From the NCBI RefSeq assembly GCF_024267655.1, contig NZ_CP100595.1, positions 1,984,001-2,048,000 of the forward strand: a stretch of 64,000 nucleotides of DNA, given 5' to 3'. The notes below the pieces were generated by a model. It saw only the letters and a list, made by a program, of their open reading frames with translations. It was not told the origin of the DNA and made no database searches. The stretch is from Arcobacter roscoffensis (GTDB lineage Bacteria; Campylobacterota; Campylobacteria; Campylobacterales; Arcobacteraceae). Shown piece by piece: positions 46,381-60,968 of the stretch (positions are counted from its first letter, which is position 1; each line of letters starts with the position of its first letter). A program made the translations under genes and the position numbers.

Positions 46381-47445
46381 ATGTTGATGTTGACATATTT
46401 CCTAATAGCAGTAGGAATATCATTTTTATGTTCAATACTTGAAGCAGTATTACTATCAATAACACAAGCTCATATAGAAATCGTTAAAAATAAAAACTCT
46501 ACACTTGGTAACTTAATGCAACACCAAAAAGATAATATTGATTTATCAATTGGTGCTATTTTAACTTTAAATACATTCGCACATACACTAGGTGCAGCAG
46601 GAGTAGGAGCAGAGGCTGTGAAACTGTTTGGGGAAGAGTATATGTTTTATATATCAGCTATTCTAACTCTACTTATTTTAGTATTTTCTGAAATTATCCC
46701 TAAAACACTGGGTGCTTATTATTGGAGTTCATTAAGTGGAATCTGTAGTAGAATAATAAAAGTATTAGTTTTAATAACTTACCCTCTTTTAATAATCATG
46801 AATAAAATGACAAATCTTCTAACTCCAAAAGAAAAAAGAGATAAAATTACAAAAGAAGAGATAAATGCAGCAGCAAATATCGCTCAAGAAAATGGAATTA
46901 TAAAAGATAAAGATAGTGATATTATTGAAAATCTTCTTAATTTAGAAGATATAAAAGTAAAAGATATTCATACTCCAAGAAGTGTTATGGTTGCTTTTAA
47001 TGAAGACGTAGTAATTGAAAGTTTTGAAGATGGTGAAAAAAACTTAGATTTCTCAAAATTAAAAGAATACTCAAGAATACCTGTATATTCTTCAAATGTA
47101 GATAATATCGTAGGTATGTTTTTCTCAAAAGAATACTTCCATGAGTATGTAGAAAACAATATGAAAGATAAAAGTAAAATCATCAAGCCTATTTTCAAAG
47201 TAAATGAAAACATTCCTATTTCAAAACTTTTAGATTTATTCTTATCAAGAAAAGAACAACTATTTTTAGTTGTTGATAACTATGGTCAAACTGAGGGTGT
47301 TGTAACCTTAGAAGATGCGATTGAGACTCTTTTAGGAATAGAAATAGTTGATGAACATGACCAAAATATCGACATGAGACAAGTTGCAAAAAATAGGATG
47401 AAACTTGTAAGAAACAATATTCTAAAAAAGAAAACTACTAACTAA
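46381..47445 (+). CDS. CNNM/CorC-type protein (DUF21 plus CBS), second paralogue
   Basis: 354 residues, paralogue of the protein at 22263 with the same layout: DUF21 helices (about 1-160, 'SILEAVLLS', 'FSEIIPKTLGAYYW'), CBS pair ('IHTPRSVMVAF', 'VTLEDAIETLLGIEI') and a short basic tail, without the CorC-HlyC domain. The middle region carries an extra acidic loop ('SFEDGEKNLDFSKLKEY'). Unlike the first copy there is no upstream ORF or carbonic anhydrase partner. Convergent with the kinase gene, overlapping by 8 bp. Confidence 0.88.
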   Translation: MLMLTYFLIAVGISFLCSILEAVLLSITQAHIEIVKNKNSTLGNLMQHQKDNIDLSIGAILTLNTFAHTLGAAGVGAEAVKLFGEEYMFYISAILTLLILVFSEIIPKTLGAYYWSSLSGICSRIIKVLVLITYPLLIIMNKMTNLLTPKEKRDKITKEEINAAANIAQENGIIKDKDSDIIENLLNLEDIKVKDIHTPRSVMVAFNEDVVIESFEDGEKNLDFSKLKEYSRIPVYSSNVDNIVGMFFSKEYFHEYVENNMKDKSKIIKPIFKVNENIPISKLLDLFLSRKEQLFLVVDNYGQTEGVVTLEDAIETLLGIEIVDEHDQNIDMRQVAKNRMKLVRNNILKKKTTN

Positions 47446-49198
47446 GATTTTTTGGTAAAGAGATTTTAAAAACAGCTCCCTCTTTACCATTTTCTACACT
47501 AAGTTCGCCCTCAAAATGTTTTTCAATTATAGTTTTACACATATAAAGCCCTAATCCTGTACCTTTAAACTTGTGTTTTGTAGTAAAATATGGATCAAAA
47601 ACTTTTGCTAAATTCTCTTCACTAATACCACCTGCATTATCTTCAATAATAATTTGTACAAACTTTACATCTTCTAAAAGATTTATTTTCACAAATCTAC
47701 TACTTTTTATATCATTTTGAACAAAAGCATCTTTTGCATTATTCAATATATTTATTAAAACTTGTGAGAGTTCTTGTCCAACAATTTTTAACCTTACTTC
47801 TTTTTCATAATCAATATTGTTTACAAGTGTGATATGATTGTTTTTTAAAGATGCACTAACTATTTTTAGACTTTCATCAATTCTTTTTTGAAGGAGCTCT
47901 TCATTTTTGACTTTTTTTTCTTTTATAAAGTCTTGAAAGGTATCAATAGTTTCTGATAAATATTTACAATTAGACACAATAATATCCATACTCTTTGGAA
48001 TATCTTCTTTTTTAATCATTTCTAATTCATGATTTAGTTTCACACCACTTGCCGCTGTTGATATGGTACTTAAAGGTTGTCTCCATTGATGGGCTATATT
48101 TGCAATCATTTCTCCCATTTGAGCCATCTTTGACTGTTCTAAGAGCTGTTTATCTTTTTGTATTATTTTATTAAAATTCTCTTTTAGTATAAGTCGTTTT
48201 AGATTTTGCTGATACACTACAAAAACAATTAGTGCAATTAAAATAAATACCATAAATTTTATCATTTTATAGTAATCATTTAAAGCTCTAAACTCATGAC
48301 CTTGACTAATAATTGCTACAAATGCTAACTGATCATAACTTATACTATTTAGTATCGGTATAGTAGTGATTATTACATCGTCACTATCTAGAAACATAGA
48401 GTTTATGTTTTTTCTTTCAGCTTGGGAATAAATAGTTCTAGATGTATTCTTTGAAGGTTTTATTTCTTTTAGACTTTTATTAGCTACCCTTTGAAGCTCT
48501 TTTAAAACCTTAGTATTATGCAAAAAACCTTCATTATGAGCTTTTTGATATACATTATTTGTTTCTAAAAAACCTTTATCAAAATATTTTTCTTTTATGA
48601 TTATATTACTTAGGATACTATAGTCTCTCATTAAAGAAGAAGTTAAAAATTGTTCTGAAAAAGTAATCTCAATTAAACCTAAATATTTTTTATCTTTAAA
48701 TATAGGGTAAATTGAACTAAACCCTGCACTATTATTTTGAATATTATATGTATGAAGTGGAGTTTTATTCTTATAAACATAAGAATAAAGTTTTGAGTCT
48801 TTATTTATTTTGCTTGTAGCAATAAAAATATCATTTTTAAATGAAACTAACTTTATACTTTTTACAAAATTCTTATCTAAACTATTTACTCTTTTTTTTA
48901 ACTTACTTAAAATTGTGTTATTGATATGATTTTTTTGTTCTTGAGTTTTGTTTTTATAATCTAAAATAATGTCTTGAAGTTCTGTTATTTCTAATATGCC
49001 TGAATAAATAACTTGTGATAGTTGTTTTTGTTGTGAAATAATATTAGTATATGCATTTGTATATATTTTTTGCACATCTTTTAAGTACTTTTTATTGTTT
49101 TCATTTTTATTAAGACCTACGATTAGGTAACTTAAAATAAATGTGATTATAAAAATGATAAAGAATTTGATTTTTAAAGATAATTTATTTCGTTCGAT
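47438..49198 (-). CDS. Membrane sensor histidine kinase, probable ATC (or ATT) start
   Basis: Sensor kinase: membrane helix, cache-type extracytoplasmic domain, second helix ('MIKFMVFILIALIVFVVYQQ'), H-box 'MGEMIANIAHQWRQP', HATPase ('NILNNAKDAF', 'GTGLGLYMCKTIIEKHF'). The first canonical in-frame start is GTG at 49075, but the open frame continues upstream without stop and encodes a perfect signal anchor ('LSLKIKFFIIFIITFILSYL'). That extension has no ATG, GTG or TTG. A TATAAT at 49228-49233 and AAAGGA at 49204-49209 lead directly to ATC (49198) or ATT (49201). I therefore place the start at ATC, giving 586 residues. A sequencing error is the main alternative. Confidence 0.8.
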   Translation of the reverse strand: MERNKLSLKIKFFIIFIITFILSYLIVGLNKNENNKKYLKDVQKIYTNAYTNIISQQKQLSQVIYSGILEITELQDIILDYKNKTQEQKNHINNTILSKLKKRVNSLDKNFVKSIKLVSFKNDIFIATSKINKDSKLYSYVYKNKTPLHTYNIQNNSAGFSSIYPIFKDKKYLGLIEITFSEQFLTSSLMRDYSILSNIIIKEKYFDKGFLETNNVYQKAHNEGFLHNTKVLKELQRVANKSLKEIKPSKNTSRTIYSQAERKNINSMFLDSDDVIITTIPILNSISYDQLAFVAIISQGHEFRALNDYYKMIKFMVFILIALIVFVVYQQNLKRLILKENFNKIIQKDKQLLEQSKMAQMGEMIANIAHQWRQPLSTISTAASGVKLNHELEMIKKEDIPKSMDIIVSNCKYLSETIDTFQDFIKEKKVKNEELLQKRIDESLKIVSASLKNNHITLVNNIDYEKEVRLKIVGQELSQVLINILNNAKDAFVQNDIKSSRFVKINLLEDVKFVQIIIEDNAGGISEENLAKVFDPYFTTKHKFKGTGLGLYMCKTIIEKHFEGELSVENGKEGAVFKISLPKNLS

Positions 49199-49203
49199 AA
49201 TGA

Positions 49204-49233
49204 TCCTTTGGAAAATTACTTTGAAATATTATA
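49204..49233 (-). promoter_or_regulatory. Promoter -10 and SD defining the kinase start
   Basis: TATAAT (49228-49233, read on the minus strand) would start transcription near 49221. AAAGGA follows about 12 bases later, leaving a leader of some 23 nt before the proposed ATC start. Confidence 0.55.
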
Positions 49234-49272: not shown

Positions 49273-49349
<77 letters not shown>

Positions 49350-60123: not shown

Positions 60124-60927
60124 TTAAATACAACTCTTTTGATATTGTTCTTGAAAGAATGAAGGCATAACTTCAATTGTAAAAGGATACTCTTTTAAAA
60201 TCTGAATTAATACATCGTATATAACTGTAGTATCTTCAGAGGCATATTTGATTTGACTTGTACTTAAATCTTTTGATTCCCAATTTGACTTTGACATTTT
60301 TTTTGATTTTTGGAGATTTTTATCTAAGATTATTAGAGCTGCTCTTTTTGCACCTAATTGGTTTTTTGAAGATAAGCTTTTGAAGACATTTTCTAAATCA
60401 ATTGTTGATTTTAATTTTAATCTAAACTGTCTAAAAAGGGCTTCTTTATCACCTCTTAAACCACTACCTACTTTTATTATATTTTCATCTTCTAAGATAG
60501 CTATTAAAGGCTTTAAATCCCTTACTTGTTTTGTTTGAATAATATAACATTTTGATTTTGTTGCAAGTTGGATGATAGAAATACCATGCGAGGCCTCACC
60601 TTTTTTAAATGTAGGTTTTTGCTCACTATCAAAAGCTACAAAAGGAGTTTTCTCAATAGTTTTCATAGCATTTGCTAACTGTTCTGAGGTATTTATTAGT
60701 TCAATAGTTCTATTTCCTATATTATAAGAAGCTTCATTTGGCTTGATTTGCATTTCATGGGCATTATCTATTAGTGTAAAAAGTTTTATCATTGATTTTA
60801 AAGACTCTGAACCATTTGCTATGAGCTCTTGTAAATTCTTTTCTACTTTCTCTTCAAAATTATCATCTGAAAATTTTTGAATAAGGTCTAATCTATCTTT
60901 ATTAAATAAGGTGTTTGCTATTTTGAT
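60124..60927 (-). CDS. RNase D-like 3'-5' exonuclease, probable ATC start
   Basis: DEDDy exonuclease: Asp and Glu of motif I in 'FVAFDSEQKP', motif II in 'KVGSGLRGDKEAL', and the Tyr/Asp pair of motif III in 'YASEDTTVIYDV'. The first ATG (60792) is preceded by 45 in-frame codons without a stop that read like protein (starting KIANTLFNKDRLDLIQKF). A TATAAT (60963-60968) and AGGAG (60934-60938) lie upstream of this extension, with ATC (60927) 6 bp after the SD. No ATG, GTG or TTG is available in the extension. I take ATC as the start, giving 267 residues; the shorter form would leave a leader of about 160 nt. Confidence 0.8.
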   Translation of the reverse strand: MKIANTLFNKDRLDLIQKFSDDNFEEKVEKNLQELIANGSESLKSMIKLFTLIDNAHEMQIKPNEASYNIGNRTIELINTSEQLANAMKTIEKTPFVAFDSEQKPTFKKGEASHGISIIQLATKSKCYIIQTKQVRDLKPLIAILEDENIIKVGSGLRGDKEALFRQFRLKLKSTIDLENVFKSLSSKNQLGAKRAALIILDKNLQKSKKMSKSNWESKDLSTSQIKYASEDTTVIYDVLIQILKEYPFTIEVMPSFFQEQYQKSCI

Positions 60928-60933
60928 TTGATA

Positions 60934-60968
60934 CTCCTAAATAGTTTGGAAACGTTTTGCGTATTATA
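60934..60968 (-). promoter_or_regulatory. Promoter -10 and SD for the exonuclease gene
   Basis: TATAAT on the minus strand (60963-60968) predicts transcription from about 60956, and AGGAG (60934-60938) follows. The spacing fits a start at ATC 60927 rather than at the downstream ATG. Confidence 0.55.

What the first reader, a model, noticed from the sequence alone, without database searches (positions are those of the whole stretch)
49198..49233. Sensor kinase that appears to start at ATC or ATT
The frame extends 41 codons beyond the first canonical start and encodes a textbook signal anchor, needed to place the sensor domain outside. TATAAT, a short leader and AAAGGA precede ATT/ATC, and no ATG, GTG or TTG exists in the extension. 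Non-AUG starts of this type are known mainly from infC and pcnB, where IF3 controls them.
Basis: partly seen in the sequence, partly recalled or inferred. Interest (0 to 1): 0.5.

Follow-up and report, generated by a model that had tools for sequence, protein, structure and literature searches.

The report
Conserved non-AUG start of sensor kinase
A bacterial sensor gene appears to begin protein synthesis at an unusual codon (ATC instead of ATG); the related genes in 12 other genomes do the same with ATA, ATT or ATC, so it is not a sequencing error, and at least two more gene families in these bacteria show the same habit.

Summary
The kinase frame (47438-49228, minus strand) has no ATG/GTG/TTG before GTG 49075; AAGGA ends 5 nt before ATC 49198-49196. 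Twelve orthologues, all in one other genus of the same family, have at that codon ATA (6), ATT (4) or ATC (2), never ATG, and AAGG(A/C/G) ends 5-7 nt upstream in all 13 genomes. Four have an in-frame stop touching the Shine-Dalgarno (SD) sequence; four have no canonical codon until residue 126-129. Of 86 other sensor kinases, 81 have a canonical codon by the first membrane helix. It is not the only such gene: an RNase D-like exonuclease in the window (ATC 60927-60925) has ATC/ATT in 16 of 16 close orthologues, and a small lipoprotein elsewhere has AUH (AUA/AUU/AUC) in 67 of 100 family genomes, while two genomes carry ATG at exactly that codon. infC itself most likely starts at TTG here. Most likely these genes initiate weakly at AUH, as infC/pcnB do in E. 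coli and ccpN in S. aureus. IF3 sensitivity is inferred, not shown; neutral decay of the start codon in AT-rich genomes is not excluded.

The parts
49228..49233 (-). -10-like TATAAT of the kinase promoter
   Evidence: read; TATAAT-like box at a similar place in 11 of 12 orthologues, by eye
49204..49209 (-). Shine-Dalgarno AAAGGA, ending 5 nt before the ATC
   Evidence: AAGG[A/C/G] ends 5-7 nt before AUH in 13 of 13
49196..49198 (-). non-AUG start codon ATC
   Evidence: AUH at this aligned column in 13 of 13 orthologues counting the window, ATG in none
47438..49198 (-). sensor histidine kinase: N-terminal membrane anchor, sensor domain, HisKA and HATPase_c
   Evidence: Pfam HisKA and HATPase_c; dCache_3 in 7 of 13 orthologous sensor parts at E<=1, not in the window's own; 12 orthologues
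49073..49075 (-). GTG, the first canonical in-frame codon (read here as an internal Val, not the start)
   Evidence: four orthologues have no canonical codon before residue 126
49273..49349 (-). tRNA-Met (CAT) directly upstream, initiator type by eye; neighbour, probably not part of the mechanism
   Evidence: ARAGORN; no tRNA in the fetched loci of the 12 orthologues, about 1.5 kb upstream
60925..60927 (-). second conserved non-AUG start in the window: ATC of an RNase D-like exonuclease (SD AGGAG, 6 nt spacing)
   Evidence: ATC or ATT in 16 of 16 close orthologues counting the window
60124..60927 (-). 3'-5' exonuclease gene (PF01612) starting at that ATC

Best explanation
The kinase mRNA starts a short way downstream of TATAAT. 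The 30S subunit is placed by AAGGA, and the initiator tRNA starts at AUC 49198-49196 (AUA, AUU or AUC in orthologues) with one codon-anticodon mismatch. The protein therefore has its N-terminal membrane anchor and an outside sensor domain. That the gene starts at this codon is well supported by comparison (the confidence given is for this step). That the start was kept for its weakness is inferred, at about even odds: IF3 rejects most AUH initiation complexes, so output stays low and would follow IF3 activity or ribosome availability. The kinase belongs to a small set of genes in this bacterial family that keep AUH starts, together with an RNase D-like exonuclease and a small lipoprotein.
For: AUH at the same aligned codon in 13 of 13 orthologues with an SD ending 5-7 nt upstream. 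In-frame TAA touching the SD in four orthologues rules out an upstream start there. First canonical codon at residue 126-129 in four orthologues, although codons 2-118 are under purifying selection (dN/dS 0.037 to 0.173 in five pairs). Parsimony minimum of 6 third-base changes among A, T and C on the best tree, none to G. Controls: 81 of 86 other kinases have a canonical codon by TM1+6. Same arrangement in the exonuclease, 16 of 16, and the lipoprotein, 67 of 100 genomes; in two more (L260, L261) ATG stands at exactly the AUH position behind a nearly identical leader. Reporter precedent: AUH sites gave about 10% (ccpN up to 30% in rich medium) of AUG in S. aureus (PMC13009471, passages).
Against: No protein, ribosome-profiling or expression data. 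IF3 dependence is untested. The absence of G at the third base is not evidence of selection by itself: G is only 4.1% at fourfold sites of these genes, so 13 independent codons would all lack it with probability 0.58. Two orthologues (L038, L047) have a TTG near the membrane helix, without an SD. The 12 orthologues are all from one genus, so they are not 12 independent cases, and poorly supported branches make the count of six changes soft. The nearest non-orthologous relatives (L114, L049) and the full-length relatives in other genera (L006, L016, L122-L125) have canonical starts, so for the kinase the habit is confined to two genera.
Confidence: 0.9

Rival explanations
1. The gene does start at AUH, but for no regulatory reason: in an AT-rich genome the third base of a start codon drifts away from G in genes where little protein is enough, and rarely drifts back. 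(This competes with the reason given above, not with the start codon.)
For: G is 4.1% at fourfold sites; third bases at the start vary like a synonymous site; isolated AUH starts occur where relatives read keep canonical codons (kinase L055 in G112; perhaps peroxidase L224 in G000).
Against: AUH is kept in 13 of 13 kinase orthologues, 16 of 16 close exonuclease orthologues and 67 of 100 lipoproteins over ten genera, with a well-placed SD, while most genes keep ATG/GTG/TTG. Drift alone should give more mixtures within a genus; for the lipoprotein only genus g5 shows one (8 AUH, 2 ATG).
Confidence: 0.35
2. Translation starts at a canonical codon downstream (GTG 49075) and the extension is untranslated leader.
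For: GTG is in frame.
Against: Four orthologues have no canonical codon before residue 126; the extension carries the membrane anchor and is under purifying selection in orthologues; no AGG-type SD before the GTG by eye.
Confidence: 0.03
3. Sequencing error or frameshift hides a normal start.
For: None found.
Against: The same arrangement is present in 13 genomes; three of the contigs match named public records by length (CANLWY010000001, QKDL01000081, JABXII010000006).
Confidence: 0.01
4. Translation depends on the upstream cistron (coupling) and the start codon matters little.
For: In L044 the upstream gene stops 2 nt before the AUA.
Against: In the window the upstream gene is a tRNA; in the other 11 orthologues the upstream stop is 24-53 nt away.
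Confidence: 0.05

Closest known systems
infC (IF3): AUU start in E. coli, AUA in S. aureus (passages)
   Same: AUH start with SD; IF3 lowers initiation at it
   Different: infC encodes IF3 and regulates itself; in the lineage studied here infC most likely starts at TTG in 13 of 13 genomes, so that loop is not visible
pcnB AUU start, E. coli (Binns & Masters 2002, seen only as cited)
   Same: a non-infC gene kept low by an AUH start
   Different: different protein; the AUH-started RNase D-like exonuclease of this window is the closer functional parallel (RNA 3'-end metabolism, inferred)
ccpN (AUA) and cvfC1 (AUU) in Staphylococcus (PMC13009471, passages seen)
   Same: conserved AUH start with strong SD; low efficiency measured there; ccpN medium-dependent
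   Different: other phylum and proteins; shown by experiment there, only by comparison here

Membership tests
genes with an AUH start codon (infC/pcnB/ccpN kind) | AUA, AUU or AUC at the initiation position with no usable canonical codon | tested here: met
   13 of 13 orthologues have AUH; 11 of 13 have no canonical codon up to TM1+6, the other two a TTG without SD
genes with an AUH start codon (infC/pcnB/ccpN kind) | well-placed Shine-Dalgarno sequence | tested here: met
   AAGG[A/C/G] ends 5-7 nt upstream in 13 of 13
genes with an AUH start codon (infC/pcnB/ccpN kind) | non-AUG nature conserved among relatives | tested here: met
   two genera, 13 genomes, ATG in none; not in more distant relatives
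genes with an AUH start codon (infC/pcnB/ccpN kind) | lower output than with AUG | not testable with these tools
   needs reporters
genes with an AUH start codon (infC/pcnB/ccpN kind) | sensitivity to IF3 | not testable with these tools
   needs infC mutants or titration
dCache sensor histidine kinase | HisKA and HATPase_c above the Pfam cut-off | tested here: met
dCache sensor histidine kinase | dCache sensor domain | tested here: inconclusive
   PF14827 in 7 of 13 orthologues at E<=1 (best 3.4e-6), not in the window's own protein; structure model poor, pLDDT 49

The most novel reading that the evidence does not exclude
This bacterial family keeps a conserved set of AUH-start genes (this kinase, an RNase D-like exonuclease, a small lipoprotein, perhaps one to three tens per genome by extrapolation from a 15% sample) that are translated together according to IF3 activity or ribosome state: a start-codon regulon that leaves out infC itself and that gene finders restricted to ATG/GTG/TTG truncate or miss.
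Probability: 0.3. Interest if true: 0.8.

Novelty: new variant of a known kind. Interest (0 to 1): 0.62.

Why it matters
Conserved non-AUG starts in bacteria are few, and the best known is infC. Here three unrelated genes in one bacterial family keep AUH starts over many species, and a sample of about 15% of one genome (464 kb, including the window that was chosen for one of them) gave four candidates, three of them conserved. If general, a number of proteins in these genomes would be annotated with missing N-termini (membrane anchors, lipoprotein signals). It also offers a natural set of genes for testing whether start-codon discrimination by IF3 works as a wider regulator.

Tried and rejected
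Structure prediction of the sensor from four sequences was too poor to use (mean pLDDT 49), and no fold search was run. The test for selection against G at the third base was inconclusive because G is rare there. The tRNA-Met upstream was considered as a meaningful partner and rejected: no tRNA was found in the fetched loci of the 12 orthologues. My own aragorn run inside one search returned nothing even for the window locus and was discarded. In one search the printed codon column for residue 1 is not usable, because that separate alignment shifts the first residues; the start codons are taken. Candidates of the genome sample flagged only because the frame is open far upstream of a good ATG/TTG, or lying in repeats, were dropped by eye.

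Controls dropped: of 110 control loci, the 13 orthologues apart, 24 were left out before counting (4 truncated, 4 without a membrane helix, 1 with N, 15 duplicates). Of the five control kinases without a canonical codon by TM1+6, four (L059, L072, L080, L105) have one a little further on, where the helix finder had picked an upstream stretch (read); only L055 remains. Among the relatives of L055 read none shares its AUA start (L147, with N at the start, could not be read).

Literature: the searches listed no paper whose title or abstract start reports AUH starts in Arcobacter or Campylobacterota; this covers only the open-licence library, and most listed papers were not opened. Passages seen: PMC13009471, PMC9410913, PMC2147049. 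Hecht et al. 2017 is not held.

Full report
What is there. The frame 47438-49228 on the minus strand encodes a sensor histidine kinase (HisKA and HATPase_c). It is open from a TAA at 49231-49229, and its first canonical in-frame start is GTG 49075. TATAAT stands at 49233-49228 and AAAGGA at 49209-49204; the following in-frame codons are ATC (49204, sharing its A with the SD), ATT (49201) and ATC (49198). The window lies in a single-contig 3.15 Mb genome of a family that includes a record named Arcobacter.

Orthologues. The sensor part found 12 clear orthologues, all in one other genus, g19 (12 of its 16 genomes seen; identity over the sensor part 31-38%). In a phylum-wide profile search of 397 genomes the four orthologues among them (the window's own included) scored E below 1e-120 and every other listed match 1e-41 or weaker. 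In the full-length alignment the only invariant column before residue 26 is Ile 11 of the open frame, which is ATC 49198-49196. The codon there is ATA in six, ATT in four and ATC in three of 13 sequences, never ATG; AAGGA (11), AAGGC (1) or AAGGG (1) ends 5-7 nt before it. In L037, L038, L042 and L043 the in-frame stop is the TAA of TAAGGA, so nothing upstream can be the start. In L037, L040, L042 and L044 the first canonical codon is at residue 126-129, in the middle of the sensor domain. Codons 2-118 show purifying selection in the five pairs tested: dN/dS 0.037 (L046/L047), 0.136 (L042/L043), 0.09 (L045 with L046 and with L047) and 0.173 (L046/L041) (some synonymous distances near saturation). 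The protein is therefore translated from at or near the AUH codon.

Controls. The same procedure on 110 other sensor-kinase loci, mostly of the same family and phylum, kept 86 after dropping truncated, duplicate, N-containing and helix-less ones. Of these, 81 have a canonical codon up to the first membrane helix + 6, 58 have an ATG there and 34 have a canonical codon with an SD-like 4-mer; of the 13 orthologues 2, 0 and 0 do. The nearest non-orthologous relatives (L114, L049) and the full-length relatives in other genera (L006, L016, L122-L125) have canonical starts. One control, L055 of G112, looks like a further AUA start (AAAGGA TTTAGA ATA); its relatives read have canonical codons. infC most likely starts at TTG, a few nt after GGGAG, in 13 of 13 genomes.

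Not alone: the exonuclease. Of 59 window frames of at least 120 codons, three have their first canonical codon more than 20 codons in: one has an SD-supported ATG, one is the kinase, and one is a 3'-5' exonuclease at 60124-60936 (PF01612; weak match to RNase D below its cut-off). Its start reads TAG GAG TAT CAA ATC. Of 31 genomes with a match, 30 loci were read. The 16 at 59% identity or more, the window's own included, have ATC (9) or ATT (7) six nt after AGGAG or AAGGG, and an in-frame stop touches the SD in 15 of 16. Against this, several of the 16 carry a GTG or TTG a few codons downstream (GTG at the fifth residue in six) and L188 a TTG between SD and ATT; these are badly placed for the SD. 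The 14 more distant loci are mixed: TTG in nine, ATG in two (L206, L207), and L195, L203 and L204 look like AUH but were not analysed further.

Not alone: the lipoprotein. A sample of 20 evenly spaced 20-kb stretches plus the window (464 kb, 425 non-shadow frames of at least 100 codons, at least 24 of them repeat copies) gave two more candidates. One is a small lipoprotein (weak match to the HP0838 family, below its cut-off) with AAGGA TTAGAC ATC and no canonical codon before the lipobox. It has a match in 100 of 104 family genomes, and all 100 best matches were read. By a fixed rule, 67 have AUH with a 5-nt SD core at 5-7 nt (ATA 35, ATT 18, ATC 14) and no SD-supported canonical codon, 12 of these with a canonical codon without SD before the lipobox; 33 are canonical. 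AUH occurs in ten genera (g1, g3, g4, g5, g8, g10, g12, g16, g18, g19; g1, g4, g16 and g18 on one genome each), and the ten others are canonical. L260 and L261 carry ATG at the AUH position behind a nearly identical leader, which supports the position strongly.

A weak fourth candidate is a peroxidase-like gene (named by eye) in which only this genome seems to have ATC where the 29 relatives read have a canonical codon somewhere near that place; its SD spacing is 8 nt and some of those alignments begin upstream of a stop.

Mechanism. Supported by comparison: the position of the start and its non-AUG nature. Inferred from general knowledge of IF3 and from PMC13009471 (AUH sites gave about 10%, ccpN up to 30%, of the AUG output, a process modulated by IF3; passages seen): low and possibly conditional translation. 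The third base behaves like a free synonymous site: parsimony needs six changes among A, T and C on the best tree, and G is only 4.1% at fourfold sites, so 13 independent codons would lack G with probability 0.58. Absence of ATG therefore does not prove selection against ATG. The argument for function is the persistence of AUH, with a well-placed SD, in three unrelated genes across species, while most genes keep ATG/GTG/TTG.

Known and new. Conserved AUH starts are a known kind (infC, pcnB; ccpN and cvfC1 in staphylococci). What my searches did not list is their use in Campylobacterota or in a sensor kinase, or several such genes conserved in one family. The A. butzleri genome paper predicted frames with ATG, GTG and TTG only (PMC2147049, passage seen), which would hide such starts.

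Noticed in passing
window 60124-60936 (-), start ATC 60927-60925: RNase D-like 3'-5' exonuclease with a non-AUG start, ATC or ATT in 16 of 16 close orthologues counting the window.
   Followed up: yes
L228:4370-4768 (-) (G000:C1:3054370-3054768): Small lipoprotein whose start is AUH in 67 of 100 family genomes, typically behind AAAGGATTAG-like leader.
   Followed up: yes
L224:3582-4535 (-) (G000:C1:2453582-2454535): Peroxidase-like gene (by eye) with a signal-peptide-like start; this genome has no canonical codon in the first 60 codons, the 29 relatives read do.
   Followed up: partly
L055 (G112:C35:52122-53033 region): Another sensor kinase with AAAGGA TTTAGA ATA and no canonical codon before the membrane helix; relatives read have canonical codons.
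   Followed up: partly
window 49273-49349 (-): tRNA-Met (CAT) of initiator type by eye, directly upstream of the kinase; three copies 94-97% alike over 71 nt elsewhere in the genome.
   Followed up: partly
L037-L048 upstream regions: In genus g19 the kinase lies behind a MazG-like gene (12 of 12) and, in 11 of 12, a gene like nucleoside deoxyribosyltransferase (both named from sequence by eye); the window's copy has a different neighbourhood.
   Followed up: no
L227:500-19799: Long repeat region with frames recurring every 405 nt.
   Followed up: no
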